Shown: positions 4,078-11,385 of the stretch, in pieces
Layout: every line of letters starts with the position of its first letter
Position numbering within the stretch: the first letter of the stretch is position 1
NCBI GenBank assembly: GCA_019694855.1
Contig: JAIBBD010000023.1
Location: 1-33,427 of the forward strand
Source: Dehalococcoidia bacterium
GTDB lineage: Bacteria; Chloroflexota; Dehalococcoidia; UBA2979
Direction: 5' to 3'
Length of the DNA: 33,427 nucleotides
The notes under the pieces: generated by a model
Seen by the model: the letters and a program-made list of their open reading frames with translations, nothing else
Databases searched by the model: none
What the model was told of the DNA's origin: nothing
Translations under genes and position numbers: made by a program

Positions 4078-4992
4078 TCATTTCGAGGTGTCCGGGGCAT
4101 CCTCGTGACGTTCGCGGGCGAGAGCCAGGAATGCCTCGACGCGAGCGTTCTCCGCACGTCGCCGCACGCCCACGAGCGAACGTTCGGTGACGAGCGGGCC
4201 CTGCCGGAGCCGGGGTGCGCGGCCGGCGCTACGCTCCTCCGCGACCGGGAGCGGAAGCACGGTCCAGCCGAGGCCGAGGGCGACCATCTGGCGCAGCACC
4301 TCGGGGTTGTGACTTTCGAGGGCGACGCGCGGCGCGATACCGAGCGAGGCGAGGCCAGCATCGATGACGGCCCGAGTGCGGGAGCCGGCGGGGTAGAGCA
4401 CCCAGTCGGCGTCAGCCGGGGGGGTGCGGAGGCGCGAGGCGGGCGGGCCGAAGACGTACAGCGGCTCGCGAAGCACCTCGTCGGCGCGCAGGTCGCTGTC
4501 CGCGGGCGCGCCGACCACAAAGACCAGGTCGAGTTCGAACGCGCGGAGGCGTGCGGTGAGCTCGGTGCTCGTGTCGACGACGAGGCTGAGTTCGACCTCG
4601 GGGTGCTGGAGGCGGTAGCGGCGGATGACCTCGGGGAGGACGTACAGGCTGGCGGCATCGATCATGCCGACCCGCAACAGTCCGGCCTCGCCGCGGCGAC
4701 GGGCGTCGAGGCGCTCGCGCAGCGCCGCGAGGTCGGAAAGCGCGCGCTCCGCGAAGGCGAGCACCTCGCGGCCCTCGTCCGTCAGGCGGCGGTGGCGGCC
4801 GTCCGGCTCGAAGAGCGGCACCCCGAGGCGGCGTTCGAGGTCGGCGAGCGACTGCGACAGGGCGGGCTGGCTGACTCCGAGCGCCTCGGCAGCTCGAGTG
4901 AAACCGTCGAGGCGTGCGACCTCGCGGAGGTAGGCGAGCTGGCGAAGGTGGAACAGTCCGGCGTCGAGGGCCAGAGCCTCAGGGTTGGGCAC
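4078..4992 (-). CDS. LysR-family transcriptional regulator
   Basis: A winged helix-turn-helix N-terminus (LREVARLDGFTRAAEALGVSQ, continuing PALSQSLADLERRLGVPLF) is followed by a substrate-binding domain with the LysR-type TELTARLRAFELDLVFV segment. I place the start at GTG 4992 (304 residues) because a TATACT -10 box ends 6 nt upstream, implying a leaderless message; ATG 5010 or 5034 in the same frame are alternatives without a good Shine-Dalgarno. It diverges from the inositol-phosphate synthase gene across about 110 bp, the usual LysR arrangement, so it may control the lipid operon. The effector cannot be read from sequence. Confidence 0.9.
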   Translation of the reverse strand: MPNPEALALDAGLFHLRQLAYLREVARLDGFTRAAEALGVSQPALSQSLADLERRLGVPLFEPDGRHRRLTDEGREVLAFAERALSDLAALRERLDARRRGEAGLLRVGMIDAASLYVLPEVIRRYRLQHPEVELSLVVDTSTELTARLRAFELDLVFVVGAPADSDLRADEVLREPLYVFGPPASRLRTPPADADWVLYPAGSRTRAVIDAGLASLGIAPRVALESHNPEVLRQMVALGLGWTVLPLPVAEERSAGRAPRLRQGPLVTERSLVGVRRRAENARVEAFLALARERHEDAPDTSK

Positions 4993-4998
4993 GGACCG

Positions 4999-5004
4999 AG
5001 TATA
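4999..5004 (-). promoter_or_regulatory. -10 box for the LysR gene (leaderless)
   Basis: TATACT on the minus strand, with 6 nt to GTG 4992, predicts transcription starting at or next to the start codon. No good -35 hexamer is seen 16-18 nt upstream (CGTGTT is the nearest). Confidence 0.5.
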
Positions 5005-5038
5005 AGTCATGGTGATGGAAGAACACGAAAACATCTAT

Positions 5039-5100: not shown

Positions 5101-6171
5101 ATGGGTGAGCCCATCAACGTCGCGATCATCGGAGTTGGCAACTGCGCCTCGTCGCTCGTGCAGGGCGTCGAGTTCTACCGGAACGCGGAGGAGGGGCAGG
5201 TCATTCCCGGCCTGATGCACCCCGTCCTCGGCGGGTACCACATCAACGATATCCGCTTTACGGCGGCCTTCGACATCGACATCAACAAGGTGGGCAAGGA
5301 CCTGTCCGAGGCCATCACTGCCGCGCCGAACAACACGATCAAGTTCGCCGATGTGCCGCACACGGGTGTGCGGGTCGAGCGCGGGATGACGCACGACGGC
5401 CTCGGCAAGTACCTGTCGCAGATCATTACGAAGGCGCCTGGGCCCACGGCGGACATCGTCGGCATCCTGAAGAGCACGAACACCCACGTCGTCATCAACT
5501 ACCTGCCGGTTGGCTCGGAGCAGGCGACGAAGTGGTACGTCGAGCAGGTGCTGGCTGCGGGCTGCGCGCTCATCAACTGCATCCCGGTGTTCATCGCCCG
5601 CGAGGAGTACTGGGGGAACCGCTTCAAGGAGGCGGGCCTGCCGATCGTCGGCGACGACATCAAGTCGCAGGTCGGGGCGACGATCCTCCACCGGGTGCTC
5701 GCGCGGCTGTTCCAGGACCGCGGCGTCCGCATCGACCGCACCTACCAGCTGAACTTCGGCGGCAATACGGACTTCCTCAACATGCTCGAGCGGGAGCGCC
5801 TTGAGTCGAAGAAGATCTCGAAGACGAACGCGGTCACCTCGCAGATCGACTACGAGATGCCGGGCGCCGACGTGCACGTCGGGCCGTCCGACCATGTGCC
5901 GTGGCTGCTCGACCGTAAGTGGTGCCACATCCGGATGGAGGGCACGACCTTCGGCGAAGTGCCGCTGAACCTCGAGACGAAGCTCGAGGTGTGGGACAGC
6001 CCCAACTCGGCGGGCGTGGTCATCGACGCGATCCGCTGCGCGAAGCTCGGCCTCGACCGCGGGCTGGCTGGCCCGCTGATCGAGCCCTCGGCGTACTTCA
6101 TGAAGTCGCCGCCGCAGCAGCTGCACGACGACATCGCTCGCGACCGCCTCGAGGCGTACATCGCGGGCTAG
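5101..6171 (+). CDS. ino1: Inositol-3-phosphate synthase (actinobacterial type)
   Basis: This enzyme converts glucose-6-phosphate to 1D-myo-inositol 3-phosphate with NAD+, the committed step to inositol lipids. The 356-residue product has the N-terminal Rossmann motif [17 protein letters not shown] and the diagnostic catalytic segments [29 protein letters not shown] and [13 protein letters not shown]. Length and motifs match Mycobacterium Ino1 (about 367 residues) rather than the longer eukaryotic enzyme. It heads a run of lipid genes; the next start is 26 nt after its stop. The actinobacterial flavour in a probably non-actinobacterial genome suggests old transfer or shared ancestry. Confidence in family is very high. 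Confidence 0.95.
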
Positions 6172-6197: not shown

Positions 6198-7064
6198 GTG
6201 GTCTATCGGGCGTTTCGATTTGGCTCCTGGCTGGCGCGGGCGGTTCCCGTCCGCGTCAGCTACCGGGTCGCCGCGTTCTTCGGGCTGCTCGTGTACTGGG
6301 CCTGGGCCGGCGGGCGCAGGCGCTGCATCCGCAACATGACGCATGTGACCGGCGGCGACGGTGCGCGGGCGCGGACGCTCGCCCGCCGTTCCTTCTCCAA
6401 CTACGCGATCTATCTCGTTGACTTCCTCCGCTTCACGACCGTGACGCCCGAAGAGGTGCGCGAGCGCGTGGTGTTCGACGAGTGGGATCGCCTCGATGCG
6501 CAGCGCGCGGGGCAGGGCATCGTCTTCGTGACGATGCACTTCGGGAACTGGGACCTCGGCGCGGCGGCGCTCGCCGAGCACGGCATCCCGATCTCGGTCG
6601 TGGCGGACACGTTCGGCGATCCGAGACTGAACGACCTCGTACTCGGAGCACGCCGGCACCTGGGCATGGAGATCCTGGCGGCGGAGCGGATGGGGCCGAG
6701 CATCCTGCGCTCGCTGCACCGCAACAACGTGGTCGCGATGCTGATCGATGTGCCGCAAGAGGGGCCGGGCCTGGAAGTGCAGTTTTTCGATGGCCCCGTC
6801 GCCGTCGCGGACGGTCCGGCACGGATCGCGCTGCGCACGGGCGCGCCGGTGGTGGCGGTGCTGCTGCCTCGCATCGGCCGGAGCGAGCGCGTGTTGGGGC
6901 GGATCGCCCCGGTCGCGTTTGTCCCGAGTGGCGAGCAGGAGCGTGACGTGCGCGAGCTGACCCAGGCGACGATGACAGCACTCGAGGCGATGCTGCGCGA
7001 GCATCCCGATCAGTGGTACATCTTCCGCAACCTCTGGGTAGCCGACCGGAAGGGCGGGCGGTAG
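6198..7064 (+). CDS. LpxL/PatA-like lysophospholipid acyltransferase (H4D type)
   Basis: A 288-residue member of the bacterial LPLAT (LpxL/HtrB, Lip_A_acyltrans) superfamily, which transfers acyl chains to glycolipids. The catalytic motif is MHFGNWDLG with His114 and Asp119 (Hx4D), the form seen in mycobacterial PatA, which acylates phosphatidylinositol mannosides. Other conserved pieces are IRNM near residue 45, a VPQEGPGLEVQFFDGPVAVA-type third motif and a C-terminal HPDQWYIFRNLW. The N-terminal hydrophobic stretch (residues 20-37) suggests membrane association. Start GTG 6198 fits homologues. The next acyltransferase begins 3 nt after the stop. Given the adjacent inositol and PimA-like genes, an inositol-lipid substrate is inferred, not shown. 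Confidence 0.85.
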   Translation: MVYRAFRFGSWLARAVPVRVSYRVAAFFGLLVYWAWAGGRRRCIRNMTHVTGGDGARARTLARRSFSNYAIYLVDFLRFTTVTPEEVRERVVFDEWDRLDAQRAGQGIVFVTMHFGNWDLGAAALAEHGIPISVVADTFGDPRLNDLVLGARRHLGMEILAAERMGPSILRSLHRNNVVAMLIDVPQEGPGLEVQFFDGPVAVADGPARIALRTGAPVVAVLLPRIGRSERVLGRIAPVAFVPSGEQERDVRELTQATMTALEAMLREHPDQWYIFRNLWVADRKGGR

Positions 7065-7067
7065 TCC

Positions 7068-7943
7068 GTGCTCCGCTACGCGTGGCTCTGGTTCCTGGTC
7101 CGCGTGGTAGGGCGGGCGCCTGACTGGTTTCTGATGGCCGCCGCCGACCTCGGCGGAATGCTGCTGTGGTACGCGTCGCCCCGGGTGCGGGCGGTGACAA
7201 CCGACCACATGCGCCACGTCCTCGGCACGTTGAGCACTGCGAACGAGCGAATGCGGGCCGCGAAGGGGTGCGTGCGCACGGCGGGCCGCTACTATGCCGA
7301 CTTCTGCCGCGCGCCGCACCGGCCCACCGGCGCCGCCTTCGATGAGCTCGATGCCGTCGAGGGGCTCGACCGCTGGTTCGAGGCGCTCGACCGCGGCTGC
7401 GGCCTGATCGTGTGCTCCGCGCACCTCGGCAATCCCGAGTTCTTCGTGCGGGCAGTCGGCCAGCTGGAGATCGACCTGCTCGTGCTGACGGAGCCGCTCT
7501 CGCCGCCTCGCGTGCACCGCCTGGTGCACGAGGCGCGCGCTGCACGCGGGGTGCGCTTCATGCCGGCTGGGCTGAGCGCCGTGCGCGAGGCGATCACGCA
7601 TCTGAAGCAGGGCGGCGTGCTTGCGGTCCTCGGCGACCGGGACGTGCTGCACAACGGGCGACCGACGGTGTTCTTCGACGAGCGTGCCCGTCTGCCGAGC
7701 GGCGCGGTCGACCTCTCGTTGCGCACCGGCGCTCCGATCCTGCCGGTCTTCGTCACCCGGACGCCTCGCGGGCGCTACCGCGTGTACATCGACGAGGCAT
7801 TCCAGGTGCAGCGGACCGGCGACCACGAGGCGGACATCGAGGCGGGGATGCGACAGGTGGCCGCGGCGCTCGAGACCGGGATTCGCCGCGCGCCGGACCA
7901 GTGGTTCCCGTTGCAGCCGGTGTGGAGCGGACTTGCGCTCTGA
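7068..7943 (+). CDS. Second LPLAT acyltransferase (H4E type)
   Basis: A 291-residue paralogue in the same LPLAT superfamily. Its catalytic motif is SAHLGNPEFF, with His119 and Glu124 (Hx4E, as in E. coli LpxL/LpxM), unlike the Hx4D of the gene before it. Other motifs include VLGDRDVLHNGRPTVFFDE and a C-terminal APDQWFPLQPVW equivalent to the HPDQWYIFRNLW of its partner. An N-terminal hydrophobic stretch (residues 3-35) suggests membrane association. Starts at GTG 7068. The tandem placement argues for two acylations of one lipid, but the two proteins are clearly diverged, so different acceptor positions or acyl donors are likely. Confidence 0.82.
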   Translation: MLRYAWLWFLVRVVGRAPDWFLMAAADLGGMLLWYASPRVRAVTTDHMRHVLGTLSTANERMRAAKGCVRTAGRYYADFCRAPHRPTGAAFDELDAVEGLDRWFEALDRGCGLIVCSAHLGNPEFFVRAVGQLEIDLLVLTEPLSPPRVHRLVHEARAARGVRFMPAGLSAVREAITHLKQGGVLAVLGDRDVLHNGRPTVFFDERARLPSGAVDLSLRTGAPILPVFVTRTPRGRYRVYIDEAFQVQRTGDHEADIEAGMRQVAAALETGIRRAPDQWFPLQPVWSGLAL

Positions 7944-8001: not shown

Positions 8002-8802
8002 ATGACCGCTGAGTCGAATCGCGCGCATACGGACAGCCTCGGGCCACGTCGCTTCGGGACCGCCGACCTCCAGATCCATACGTCCTACGGCGACGGCATG
8101 GCGGACGCCCGCGAACTCCTCGCACGCATCGAGGAGCGGACCGACCTCGACATCATCGCCGTGACCGACCATGACGACGTGGGCGGGGCGCTCCTCGCGC
8201 GCGAGGTACATGCGCGCGGCAACTACTCCTTCGACTTCGTCCCCGGCGTCGAGCTGACGACGCGGGCGGGCCACCTGCTCGCGCTCTGGGTCGATGAGCC
8301 GCTGCGGCCGCTGCGGCCCCTCGGCGAGACCGTCGCGACCATTCACCGTATGGGCGGAGTCGCGGTGATACCGCATCCGTTCTCGTACCTGACGCGCTCG
8401 GTGGGGCAGCGCGCGCTCGAGCGCCTGATCGCGGAGGGCGACCCGGAGACGCTGCCGGACGGCATCGAGGTGGCGAACCTGACGCTGGCCGGCCGAGTGA
8501 CGGGGGCGAAGGCGTTGCGGTTGAATCGCGAGCGCTACGGCCTCGCGGAGACGGGGGGCAGCGACGCCCACTTCCCCGAGGAGGTCGGCACCGCTCGCAC
8601 GGTGTTCGCCGGGACGACGGCAGCCGAGCTGCGCGCGGCCATCCTCGCGCGGACGACAACGGGTCTGCGCGCGCACCAGGTGGGCCTGCGCACGATCGGT
8701 GTGCGCCGGCTCGCGGCGCAACAGGTGCGCGGGCTCTCCGTGACCCCGAAGAAGGTCCTGGGTCCGCATGTTCGGCGGTTGGCCGGCGCGGTGCGCCGAT
8801 GA
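8002..8802 (+). CDS. PHP-domain metal-dependent phosphoesterase
   Basis: A 266-residue PHP (polymerase and histidinol phosphatase) protein. The metal-site motifs are DLQIHTSYGDGM (the canonical first His of HxH is Gln24, while His26 is kept), VTDHDD (Asp56, His57), PGVEL, IPHPF and GSDAHFPEE. The first motif variant occurs in other PHP proteins, so activity is not excluded. ATG 8002 is chosen for the 7-nt spacing from TACAAT; ATG 7993 is in the same frame. It overlaps the next gene as ATGA. Placed inside an inositol-lipid cluster it could dephosphorylate a phosphatidylinositol-phosphate intermediate; that is inference. Generic nucleotidase or phosphoesterase roles are the alternative. Confidence 0.85.
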   Translation: MTAESNRAHTDSLGPRRFGTADLQIHTSYGDGMADARELLARIEERTDLDIIAVTDHDDVGGALLAREVHARGNYSFDFVPGVELTTRAGHLLALWVDEPLRPLRPLGETVATIHRMGGVAVIPHPFSYLTRSVGQRALERLIAEGDPETLPDGIEVANLTLAGRVTGAKALRLNRERYGLAETGGSDAHFPEEVGTARTVFAGTTAAELRAAILARTTTGLRAHQVGLRTIGVRRLAAQQVRGLSVTPKKVLGPHVRRLAGAVRR

Positions 8803-9971
8803 AGGTCGCCCTGGTTTCGCCCTACGACTGGCTGACGCCAGGGGGGGTAAACCAGCACGTCGACCAGCTCGCGAAGCAGCTCGTCATGCGCGGCCACGAG
8901 GTGCGCATCCTCGCGCCCGCGACGGGGCCGGTCGACGACCCGCGCGTCACGGTCGCGGGGACACCTGTGCCGGTTCCTGCCTCGGGGTCGCGCGCTCGCA
9001 TCACGTTCGATCCGCGGCTGGGTCGCCTCGTACGGCGCTTCCTCGAGGCGGAACAGTTCGATGTAGTGCACCTGCACGAGCCGCTCATGCCGACGCTGCC
9101 GTTGCAGGTGCTGCGCCATTCGCGCGCCGTGAACCCGGACGTGGTGAATGTGGGGACATTCCACGCGCACAGCGCGGGCGGCAACCGCATGTACTCGTAC
9201 TGGCGCATCGTCCTGAAGCGCTGGTTCCGCGAGCTGGACGGCAAGATCGCGGTGTCCCCGCCGGCGGCGGAGTACCACCACCGCTACTACCCCGGTTACT
9301 ACAACGTGATCCCGAACGGCATCGACGTCGAGCACTTCGCGAGCCGCGACATCGAGCCGCTGCCGGAGCTCGAGGATGGCTCGGTCAACATCCTCTACGT
9401 TGGCCGGGCCGAGAAGCGAAAGGGACTGCCCTACCTGCTGCGGGCCTTCGGGACGGTCAACGCGCGTAACCCGAACACCCGTCTGATCATCGTCAGCCGC
9501 GATTCGAGGCGGCTCCGGCGCTACCGTGACTCGATCGAGCGGCAGGGGCGGCGCGGCATCGTGTTCGCGGACGACGTGTCGAACGCCGACCTGCCTCGTT
9601 ACCACCGCAGCTCGCAGGTCTTCTGCTCGCCCGCCACCGGCAACGAGTCCTTCGGCTACGTCGTCGTCGAGGCGATGGCGGCGGGGCTGCCGGTGGTGGC
9701 CTCGAATATCGAGGGGTACGCCTACGTGATGACGCACGGCGTCGAGGGGCTGCTCGTGCCGCCCGAGGACACGTTCGCGCTCGCGGATGCGTTGACCGCG
9801 CTGGTGCGTGACCACGACGCACGGGCCGCGATGGGCGCGGCAGGGTACAAGCGCGCGAACGAGTTCTCGTGGCCGCGGGTGACGCAGCAGGTGCTCTCGT
9901 ACTACGAGCGGCTCCGTTACGCCCGCGGCGCCACCCCGCGCGCCGACGAGCGCGCGCGATGGCACGCGTGA
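8799..9971 (+). CDS. PimA-like GT4 glycosyltransferase
   Basis: A 390-residue GT-B enzyme of family GT4. The N-terminal domain has SPYDWLTPGGVNQHV and VVHLHEPLMP, the C-terminal domain has VIPNGIDVEHF, YVGRAEKRKGLPYLL and the EX7E motif NESFGYVVVEAMAAG. These segments correspond well to mycobacterial PimA (phosphatidyl-myo-inositol mannosyltransferase, which uses GDP-mannose at the inner membrane face). Co-location with inositol-phosphate synthase, acyltransferases and a phosphatidyltransferase supports a PimA-type role, but GT4 donor and acceptor cannot be read with certainty, so another glycolipid mannosyl- or glucosyltransferase is possible. It starts within the PHP stop and overlaps the next gene by 13 nt. 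Confidence 0.85.
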   Translation: MKVALVSPYDWLTPGGVNQHVDQLAKQLVMRGHEVRILAPATGPVDDPRVTVAGTPVPVPASGSRARITFDPRLGRLVRRFLEAEQFDVVHLHEPLMPTLPLQVLRHSRAVNPDVVNVGTFHAHSAGGNRMYSYWRIVLKRWFRELDGKIAVSPPAAEYHHRYYPGYYNVIPNGIDVEHFASRDIEPLPELEDGSVNILYVGRAEKRKGLPYLLRAFGTVNARNPNTRLIIVSRDSRRLRRYRDSIERQGRRGIVFADDVSNADLPRYHRSSQVFCSPATGNESFGYVVVEAMAAGLPVVASNIEGYAYVMTHGVEGLLVPPEDTFALADALTALVRDHDARAAMGAAGYKRANEFSWPRVTQQVLSYYERLRYARGATPRADERARWHA

Positions 9972-10579
9972 CGTCGATGAAGCTGCTGCCCTCGCGAGCG
10001 CCGGCGAGCGTGCTCGGGCCGATCGTGGCCGTGCTGGCGCGCGCCGGCGTGACGCCAAACATGCTGTCGGTGACGGGGCTGCTGGGAAACGGCGCGGCCG
10101 GACTGCTCGTTGCCCGGGGCGACCTCATCGCGGCGGGCATCGTGATGCTGCTCGCGAGCGGCCTCGACATGCTCGATGGGGCGCTGGCACGGGCGACGGG
10201 TAAGGCCGGCCCCGTCGGCGCGCTGCTCGACTCCACGTTCGACCGCGTATCGGAGGCCGCGGTGCTGTTCGGCGTCCTCTGGTACGCCCTCGACGGCGGC
10301 CACGACGACCAGGCGGCGCTTGCGTTCGTGGCCATCGTCGGCTCCCTGCTCGTCTCCTACGTGCGCGCCCGCGTCGAGGGCCTCGGCGGGCGGCTCACGG
10401 ACGGCCTGTTCACGCGCGCCGAGCGGGTCGTCCTGCTGGCGCTGGCGCTGATCTTTGGGTTCCTGCGTGGCGCGCTCTGGGTGCTCGCGGTGCTCACGCT
10501 TGTGACCGCGGCGCAGCGCCTGTACCTCGGTGCGCGGGTCCTCGGTGGACCCGGTGGCACGGCGGGAGGGACGCCATGA
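9959..10579 (+). CDS. CDP-alcohol phosphatidyltransferase (probable PI-phosphate synthase)
   Basis: A 206-residue integral membrane enzyme with the complete CDP-alcohol phosphatidyltransferase motif DxxDGxxARx8Gx3Dx3D: Asp70, Asp73, Gly74, Ala77, Arg78, Gly87, Asp91 and Asp95. About six hydrophobic helices surround it. The family joins CDP-diacylglycerol to an alcohol phosphate. With ino1 and a PimA-like gene in the same run, the likely acceptor is inositol 3-phosphate (actinobacterial PgsA1/PIPS type); PGP synthase is the main alternative. Start ATG 9959 overlaps the upstream gene by 13 nt; ATG 9977 is a possible later start. It overlaps the next gene as ATGA. Confidence 0.88.
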   Translation: MARVTSMKLLPSRAPASVLGPIVAVLARAGVTPNMLSVTGLLGNGAAGLLVARGDLIAAGIVMLLASGLDMLDGALARATGKAGPVGALLDSTFDRVSEAAVLFGVLWYALDGGHDDQAALAFVAIVGSLLVSYVRARVEGLGGRLTDGLFTRAERVVLLALALIFGFLRGALWVLAVLTLVTAAQRLYLGARVLGGPGGTAGGTP

Positions 10580-11385
10580 CCCCGAGCGCGCTCAGCCGCG
10601 AGGAGCAGGCGCAGGTCATGGCCTACCTCGAGCAGCAGATCTCAGGCTCGGTCTCCCTCGAGGTGTGGACGCGCAAAGAGTCGCCGCTGATCCGCACGGA
10701 CCGCGAACCATGCGTGCACTGCGAGGACGTCGTGTCCGTGGCGCGGCAGGTCGCCGCGCTCCACCCGGCGCTCTCGGTGACGTTGTACGACCTCGACCGG
10801 CACGAGCGGCGCGCCCAGGAGGCCGGAATCGACCGGCCGCCCACGACGGTGCTGCGCGGGCGCGGGGGTCGTCAGTTCCGCATCACCGGACTCTGGGCGG
10901 GACTGCTGTTCCCGCCGACGCTCGACGTGATGGCGATCCTCAGCGCAGGCGCGACGCCGCTCTCAGACGACACACGCGCGGCGCTGGCCTCGCTGGAGCA
11001 GGACGTGACGGTCGAAGTCCTCGGGGCGGCCTACGACGCCTACTCGGCGCACATGCTGCGGCTCGTGGCGGCCTTCGCCGTCGAGTCGAAGCGAGTGCAG
11101 GCCTCGTTCGTGAACGTGGCGAACTACCCGTTGCTCGCGGCCGCCCGCTCCGTCGAGGAGATCCCCGTCGTGTTCATCGGCAACAAGCGTTTCGTCGGCG
11201 TGTGGGACGGGCCGGAGCTGGCCGAGCAGATCCGCCGCGTCGCCGGTGGTGACGACACCCCGGTCAGCCGAGGCAACCCGATGTCGGGTCCGTTCTACAC
11301 CGACGAGGAGATCGCGGCCCTCGCCGCCGAGCGCCTCGAGGAGCCGCCTCGGACCGCGGGCGGGCTCTACCTTCCCGGCCGCTGA
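10576..11385 (+). CDS. Tandem thioredoxin-fold (PDO-like) protein
   Basis: A 269-residue cytoplasmic protein with two glutaredoxin/thioredoxin-like folds in a row, as in protein disulfide oxidoreductases and the AhpF N-terminal domain. The first unit carries a redox motif CVHC (Cys46-Cys49) and a following PPTTVLRGRGGRQFRITG. In the second unit the position where a CxxC would sit reads VLGAAYDAYSAHML, so the second active site is gone, while the cis-Pro region EIPVVFIGNKRFVGVW is kept. A C-terminal tail of about 45 residues follows. It is translationally coupled (ATGA) to the phosphatidyltransferase gene, yet no link to lipid synthesis is evident. Function: probably thiol-disulfide exchange; partner unknown. 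Confidence 0.75.
   Translation: MTPSALSREEQAQVMAYLEQQISGSVSLEVWTRKESPLIRTDREPCVHCEDVVSVARQVAALHPALSVTLYDLDRHERRAQEAGIDRPPTTVLRGRGGRQFRITGLWAGLLFPPTLDVMAILSAGATPLSDDTRAALASLEQDVTVEVLGAAYDAYSAHMLRLVAAFAVESKRVQASFVNVANYPLLAAARSVEEIPVVFIGNKRFVGVWDGPELAEQIRRVAGGDDTPVSRGNPMSGPFYTDEEIAALAAERLEEPPRTAGGLYLPGR

What the first reader, a model, noticed from the sequence alone, without database searches (positions are those of the whole stretch)
8002..8802. PHP protein as candidate for the missing PI-phosphate phosphatase
Seen: a PHP phosphoesterase translationally coupled to the PimA-like GT and just upstream of the phosphatidyltransferase. Established: PIPS enzymes yield phosphatidylinositol phosphate, which must be dephosphorylated before PimA acts; as far as I know the phosphatase is not firmly assigned. 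Inference: this PHP protein could be it. The first metal His is Gln24, so metal use may differ from the textbook PHP site.
Basis: inference. Interest (0 to 1): 0.6.

Follow-up and report, generated by a model that had tools for sequence, protein, structure and literature searches.

The report
PHP phosphatase candidate for phosphatidylinositol synthesis
A small metal-dependent enzyme gene sits inside the gene cluster that builds inositol lipids in Chloroflexota bacteria, across many lineages, and is a good but untested candidate for the phosphatase that bacterial inositol-lipid synthesis needs and that in most bacteria has never been identified.

Summary
In detail: 8002-8802 (+) encodes a 266-aa PHP protein with Gln24 at the first metal position, overlapping a PimA-like mannosyltransferase by ATGA, with a PIP synthase (PIPS) next. 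Gene order is reshuffled between clades but the PHP stays. A minimal Ino1-PHP-PimA-PIPS operon leaves one pathway step open: PIP dephosphorylation. Active-site residues are nearly invariant except position 24, Gln in 57 and His in 36 of 94 linked copies, so Gln24 is a tolerated ligand swap. Against: the gene is patchy. Only 16 of 54 sampled genomes of the class have it, yet all 54 have PIPS, and close relatives carry the same operon without it and without another phosphatase among the neighbours scanned. It would be one lineage's solution, not a universal enzyme; Bacteroidetes already have an assigned one (PgpA-type BT_1525). Pathway membership is near certain; PIP phosphatase activity is probable (about 0.55) and untested.

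The parts
8002..8802 (+). PHP-family phosphoesterase, 266 aa; candidate phosphatidylinositol-phosphate phosphatase
8071..8073 (+). codon of Gln24, first metal-ligand position (His in other PHP proteins)
   Evidence: Q/H alternation
8701..8796 (+). basic C-terminal helix (residues 234-265 in the model), possible membrane contact
   Evidence: helix; tail charge +9 and comparison; membrane role is inference
8799..8802 (+). ATGA overlap of PHP stop and PimA start
   Evidence: the same 4-base overlap in 41 of 74 loci
8799..9971 (+). PimA-like GDP-mannose:phosphatidylinositol mannosyltransferase
9977..10579 (+). PIPS-like CDP-alcohol phosphatidyltransferase (start codon uncertain: 9959 or 9977)
5101..6171 (+). 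Ino1, inositol-3-phosphate (1L-inositol-1-phosphate) synthase
   Evidence: TIGR03450 545.8 bits (cut-off 638); Pfam Inos-1-P_synth
6198..7064 (+). PatA-type acyltransferase (start uncertain)
   Evidence: Pfam Lip_A_acyltrans 9.7e-38; best NCBIfam match PIM acyltransferase 143 bits, cut-off 209
7068..7943 (+). second PatA-type acyltransferase

Best explanation
The protein is a compact, cytosolic, metal-dependent PHP phosphatase dedicated to inositol-lipid synthesis. [quoted passage not shown] PIPS joins it to CDP-diacylglycerol to give phosphatidylinositol phosphate (PIP); the PHP protein removes the ring phosphate to give PI; PimA mannosylates PI and the PatA-type enzymes acylate the product. 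The basic C-terminal helix may hold it at the membrane, where PIPS and PimA work. Shown by sequence: gene identities, conserved linkage, conserved PHP active site, conserved inositol-phosphate pocket of PIPS. Inferred: that the substrate is PIP, the metal content, the cytosolic place and the membrane contact.
For: Linkage: of 80 named loci, PimA in 74, PIPS in 68, Ino1 in 65 (many contigs truncated); with 6 kb visible on both sides, PIPS 32 of 32, PimA 32 of 32, Ino1 31 of 32. The linked state needs 4 changes on a tree of 118 PHPs against a shuffled mean of 22. The PHP stays while gene order changes: PIPS is downstream of PimA in most loci and upstream of Ino1 in the clade with the CF_ soil MAGs. 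Six loci carry Ino1-PHP-PimA-PIPS with no acyltransferase detected (L081, L082, L083, L085, L086, L097), so the PHP fills the one open step. ATGA overlap with PimA in 41 of 74 loci. Ligand residues H26, D31, H57, E84, H125, H190 in 94 of 94 linked PHPs, H91 and D188 in 93 of 94. PIPS of PHP-plus and PHP-minus loci has the R94 equivalent wherever the motif could be read, 80 of 85 and 36 of 37, the other six being unread, so its product is expected to be PIP. No PgpA homologue in 60 of 60 genomes; 6 of 30 PHP-bearing genomes also lack any PF00459 inositol monophosphatase. A myxococcal PHP of the subfamily lies next to a nucleotidyltransferase and two CDP-alcohol phosphotransferases, one PIPS/AIPS-like: another context where an inositol-phosphate adduct may need dephosphorylation.
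Against: No activity data. The gene is patchy: 16 of 54 genomes of the class (E<=1e-80) have it while 54 of 54 have PIPS. The same RbfA-TruB-Ino1-PimA-PIPS locus occurs without it in close relatives with no phosphatase among the ten neighbours scanned, and 9 of 30 PHP-minus genomes also lack inositol monophosphatase, so some other enzyme must do the step there and could do it here too. Three subfamily members (L050, which is the same copy as L014, then L064 and L068) have unrelated genes on the side that is visible. The hydrophobic moment of the tail is no higher than in unlinked copies. Some PHP relatives (CehA, PsfC) are not phosphatases, by recall.
Confidence: 0.55

Rival explanations
1. 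The PHP hydrolyses something else in the inositol-lipid pathway that is not a phosphate monoester: it deacylates PIMs or cleaves PI as a turnover or editing enzyme.
For: Its best NCBIfam model is CehA/McbA metallohydrolase, below cut-off; PsfC is a close structural match (Z 19.0); CehA and PsfC are recalled as non-phosphatases. Patchy presence suits an accessory function.
Against: Six loci have no PatA/PatB hit in the operon, so deacylation is not the common role. The PHP ligand positions are kept, as in RNase AM and Cv1693, which act on phosphoesters.
Confidence: 0.17
2. It is a soluble inositol monophosphatase that dephosphorylates inositol phosphate before PIPS, supplying free inositol for another use.
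For: Ino1 is in the operon; 6 of 30 PHP-bearing genomes lack PF00459 monophosphatases.
Against: PIPS keeps the inositol-phosphate pocket, so such an activity would drain its substrate; coupling is to PimA, the enzyme that uses PI; the tail is longer and more basic than in unlinked copies.
Confidence: 0.12
3. It is a general nucleotide phosphatase or nuclease (RNase AM or 3',5'-bisphosphate phosphatase type) whose place in the operon is incidental.
For: RNase AM and Cv1693 are the nearest characterised sequences.
Against: Scores 51 and 50 against cut-offs of 375 and 400; it lacks the insertion those enzymes have before the HP motif; linkage survives gene reshuffling; a paralogue in the same genome is unlinked (L172 linked, L173 not).
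Confidence: 0.08
4. The PHP is a non-catalytic partner that scaffolds or regulates PimA or PIPS.
For: ATGA coupling; one member, L022, has lost D188 and H91 beside PimA and Ino1.
Against: Ligands are invariant in nearly all others.
Confidence: 0.05

Closest known systems
BT_1525, PgpA-family PIP phosphatase of Bacteroides thetaiotaomicron (PMC9246714, passages read)
   Same: Proposed step (PIP to PI) and a cluster with inositol phosphate synthase and PIPS; the knock-out accumulates PIP
   Different: Unrelated protein family; PgpA found in 0 of 60 Chloroflexota genomes tested
RNase AM / Cv1693 3',5'-nucleoside bisphosphate phosphatase (PDB 7ug9, 9etk, 2yb1)
   Same: PHP fold and ligand set; 28-31 percent identity in the structure alignments
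   Different: They carry an extra insertion before the HP motif; model scores far under cut-off; Gln24 for His
TM0559 (PDB 2anu), compact PHP protein without assigned function in the entry title
   Same: Best structural match, Z 21.4 over 192 residues
   Different: 21 percent identity; no functional information in the entry title
Mycobacterial PI/PIM pathway (PgsA1, PimA, PatA)
   Same: Same enzymes around the missing step; PimA 204 bits, PgsA1 164 bits; phosphatase called yet-unidentified in 2019
   Different: No PHP gene is recalled beside mycobacterial pgsA1-patA-pimA (not tested: no actinobacterial genomes were reached)

Membership tests
PHP superfamily | PHP barrel fold | tested here: met
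   AF2 pLDDT 88; Z 21.4 to 2anu, 18.5 to 7ug9, well above non-PHP rows near 6.5
PHP superfamily | Nine-residue metal site over four motifs | tested here: inconclusive
   Eight of nine present in the window protein; position 24 is Gln. Syntenic orthologues have His or Gln there (57 Q, 36 H, 1 P of 94)
PHP superfamily | Metal-dependent hydrolase activity | not testable with these tools
   needs an enzyme assay
PIP phosphatase (functional class) | Genomic linkage with Ino1, PIPS and PimA | tested here: met
PIP phosphatase (functional class) | Present wherever PIPS is present | tested here: not met
   16 of 54 genomes of the class, PIPS in 54 of 54; not required if unrelated enzymes do the step elsewhere
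PIP phosphatase (functional class) | Releases phosphate from PIP | not testable with these tools
   needs an assay
PgpA-type PIP phosphatase (BT_1525) | PgpA domain PF04608 | tested here: not met
   No PgpA hit in the protein; 0 of 60 genomes
RNase AM / nucleoside bisphosphate phosphatase equivalogs | Score over NCBIfam cut-off | tested here: not met
   51.1 against 375; 50.3 against 400
CehA/McbA metallohydrolases | Score over NCBIfam cut-off | tested here: not met
   66.5 against 80

The most novel reading that the evidence does not exclude
This is the first PHP-type PIP phosphatase: Chloroflexota recruited a PHP hydrolase, non-orthologous to the PgpA-type enzyme of Bacteroidetes, for the last open step of bacterial PI synthesis. 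The same subfamily acts on inositol-phosphate adducts in a myxococcal cluster, so PHP enzymes include a wider class of inositol-1(3)-phosphate monoesterases working on membrane-bound or phosphodiester-linked inositol.
Probability: 0.45. Interest if true: 0.7.

Novelty: new variant of a known kind. Interest (0 to 1): 0.55.

Why it matters
PI synthesis through PIP is used by mycobacteria, other bacteria and archaea, and outside Bacteroidetes the phosphatase is still named as unidentified in a structural paper and a review (PMC6506517, PMC9385802; passages). A specific, well-bounded gene family with conserved coupling to PimA makes the step testable by a small reconstitution in E. coli. In the window's genome the PIPS is the only CDP-alcohol phosphatidyltransferase found, so the enzyme may serve the main membrane lipids there. 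The patchiness suggests that the step has been solved more than once, which warns against looking for one universal enzyme.

Tried and rejected
Gln24 as a sign of different chemistry: rejected, because Q and H alternate among syntenic orthologues and some copies are H inside Q clades (L045, L112).

MshA-like reading of the glycosyltransferase (inositol phosphate as acceptor, with the PHP acting on GlcNAc-inositol phosphate): rejected, PimA scores 204 bits against 75 for the 3c48/3c4q group.

Gene fusions (long open frames around some PHPs, 681 aa in L175 and 450 aa in L166): rejected, no second domain of the cluster was found in the extra part of the four frames tested.

A second, unlinked PHP family as the stand-in in PHP-minus genomes (alignment A4): rejected, present with E below 1e-45 in 19 of 30 PHP-plus and 18 of 30 PHP-minus genomes (my count). 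Inositol monophosphatase as the stand-in: no clear pattern, absent from 6 of 30 PHP-plus and 9 of 30 PHP-minus genomes. A stand-in phosphatase next to PIPS in PHP-minus loci: the ten neighbours scanned were adenylosuccinate synthetase, GNAT, DHDPS, TruB, Lgt, ParA, ParB, MEDS, RbfA and DUF1611; not every neighbour of every locus was scanned.

A membrane-binding tail: net charge median +7 in linked and +3 in unlinked copies, but the hydrophobic moment did not differ (0.128 against 0.132 above shuffles), so amphipathicity gives no support.

Myxococcota beyond L105: 2 of 235 genomes have a match at 1e-35; the second (L179) sits next to an unrelated gene that looks like glycogen phosphorylase by eye. 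A paper search for PsfC found nothing. The motif search was uninformative. Reports of inositol lipids in Thermomicrobium were looked for in PMC2615216 and no inositol was mentioned. Actinobacteria could not be reached.

The 40 PIPS regions, the 20 PHP regions and the two sets of 30 genomes were chosen by hand from the hit lists, so they are not frequencies. For the tree, 132 PHP hits were reduced to 118 by removing near-identical ones.

Full report
What is there. ORF 8002-8802 (+) encodes 266 aa and overlaps the next ORF at 8799 by ATGA. The order is LysR (-, 4078-5034), Ino1 5101-6171, two PatA-type acyltransferases (about 6198-7064 and 7068-7943), PHP, PimA 8799-9971, PIPS (to 10579), and a protein-disulfide-oxidoreductase-like gene 10576-11385. 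The PHP match in Pfam is weak for the N-terminal model (0.03) and clear for PHP_C (3.4e-13), but the AF2 model (pLDDT 88, alignment of 31 rows) is clearly a PHP barrel: Z 21.4 to TM0559, 19.0 to PsfC, 18.5 to RNase AM, 17.4 to Cv1693.

Who the neighbours are. The glycosyltransferase is closest to mycobacterial PimA (204 bits), far above the 3c48/3c4q group, MshA by recall (75), and PimB' (47). A profile of the phosphatidyltransferases finds M. tuberculosis PgsA1 best (164 bits). PgsA1 lines its inositol-phosphate pocket with R94, K135, R137, R152, R155 and R195 (PMC6506517, passages); by my reading the alignment has Arg or Lys at these positions of the profile. A motif scan of PIPS proteins reads R at position 94 in 80 of 85 PHP-plus and 36 of 37 PHP-minus loci, the remaining six being unread by the pattern (the other positions were read less completely). 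The expected product is therefore PIP, which has to be dephosphorylated before PimA.

Linkage. A scan of the species genome collection returned 80 loci, all but one titled as Chloroflexi/Chloroflexota members, many of them Dehalococcoidia, and one myxococcal MAG; the window's class is taken as Dehalococcoidia from these names. Within these loci PimA is found in 74, PIPS in 68, Ino1 in 65, PatB in 64 and PatA in 62; many contigs end inside the cluster. Restricted to non-redundant named loci with at least 6 kb on both sides and to genes on the same strand within 6 kb, PIPS and PimA are present in 32 of 32 and Ino1 in 31 of 32. Another 20 PHP regions from unnamed Chloroflexota genomes, picked by hand from the best hits, show 12 linked and 8 not linked; the unlinked ones fall in separate branches of the tree, and one genome (G119) carries both a linked and an unlinked copy. 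On a tree of 118 PHPs the linked label needs 4 changes against a shuffled mean of 22.1 (quick method, many deep forks open). The gene order differs between clades, yet the PHP remains. In 41 of 74 loci the PHP stop and PimA start overlap by four bases.

The active site. In 94 linked PHPs the ligand positions H26, D31, H57, E84, H125 and H190 are invariant, and H91 and D188 are kept in 93; position 24 is Q in 57, H in 36 and P in one. At least six Q/H changes are needed on the tree, including H within Q clades (L045, L112). Gln24 is thus a repeated, tolerated ligand substitution. One member (L022) has lost ligands and may be inactive.

Against a simple story. PIPS is in 386 of 400 sampled Chloroflexota. 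The PHP profile matches 350 of 400 at 1e-20, but many of these are unlinked paralogues. In the window's class, counting E at or below 1e-80, 16 of 54 sampled genomes have the PHP and 54 of 54 have PIPS (my count). In the window's own family, 13 of 18 genomes have it (E below 1e-80; several of the rest are incomplete). Of 40 hand-picked PIPS regions, 37 lack the PHP, although three of those genomes (G318, G228, G315) have a PHP linked to PimA elsewhere. In Dehalococcoidia the same locus, RbfA-TruB-Ino1-PimA-PIPS, occurs with and without the PHP, and the neighbours scanned in PHP-minus loci are housekeeping or unrelated genes. PgpA, the family of the assigned Bacteroides PIP phosphatase, is absent from 60 of 60 genomes. 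Inositol monophosphatase and a second PHP family do not show a complementary pattern. So if the PHP is the phosphatase, other lineages use something else that is still unknown; if it is not, that unknown enzyme may act here too.

The myxococcal case. In L105 a PHP of this subfamily (44 percent identical to the window protein) is followed by a nucleotidyltransferase (weak match to inositol-1-phosphate cytidylyltransferase among other sugar nucleotidyltransferases) and two CDP-alcohol phosphotransferases, one matching archaetidylinositol/phosphatidylinositol phosphate synthase models below cut-off. The genome has an Ino1-type gene elsewhere. This is a second context in which a PHP goes with inositol-phosphate transfer; it is one locus, in 1 of 235 genomes searched in that phylum, and the substrate is inferred.

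Mechanism and confidence. Membership of the PHP in the PI/PIM pathway is near certain (my estimate 0.93). That it is the PIP phosphatase is the simplest reading, because in the Ino1-PHP-PimA-PIPS operons it is the only gene without a step and PIP dephosphorylation is the only step without a gene. I put this at 0.55, limited by the patchy distribution, the chemical breadth of PHP enzymes and the lack of any assay.

What is known. Heaver et al. 2022 assign BT_1525 as PIP phosphatase from PIP accumulation in the deletion and complementation (PMC9246714, passages). The mycobacterial enzyme is called yet-unidentified in 2019 (PMC6506517, passages) and a 2022 review still writes of an unidentified phosphatase (PMC9385802, passages). 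In M. tuberculosis impA, suhB and cysQ are dispensable with normal PIMs (PMC2834668, passages). The nine-residue, three-metal PHP site and its phosphatase activity are described for PolX (PMC6616362, passages). Searches of the held library (listings only) showed no paper whose listing names a PHP protein as PIP phosphatase; subscription papers are mostly not held.

Noticed in passing
window 10052-10498: The PIPS is the only CDP-alcohol phosphatidyltransferase found in the genome, so no PgsA-type PG synthase was seen; in 31 of 60 genomes only one such enzyme was found (my count). Inositol lipids may be the main phospholipids.
   Followed up: partly
window 4078-5034 (-): A LysR-type regulator divergent from Ino1 has a match in 24 of 80 related loci, on the opposite strand upstream of Ino1; a possible regulator of the lipid operon.
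   Followed up: no
window 10576-11385: A protein-disulfide-oxidoreductase-like gene overlaps the PIPS stop and has a match in 38 of 80 loci, not always in the same place or strand; no role in lipid synthesis is obvious.
   Followed up: no
L105 956-4963: Myxococcal cluster: flippase-like gene (opposite strand), PHP, nucleotidyltransferase, two CDP-alcohol phosphotransferases; looks like an unrecognised inositol-phosphate lipid or solute pathway.
   Followed up: partly
L022 1423-2190: A linked PHP that has lost D188 and H91, beside Ino1 and PimA matches: possibly decaying in a lineage on the way to loss.
   Followed up: no
L038 and L063: One Dehalococcoidia MAG (Baikal-deep-G124) carries two copies of the PHP-PimA cluster.
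   Followed up: no
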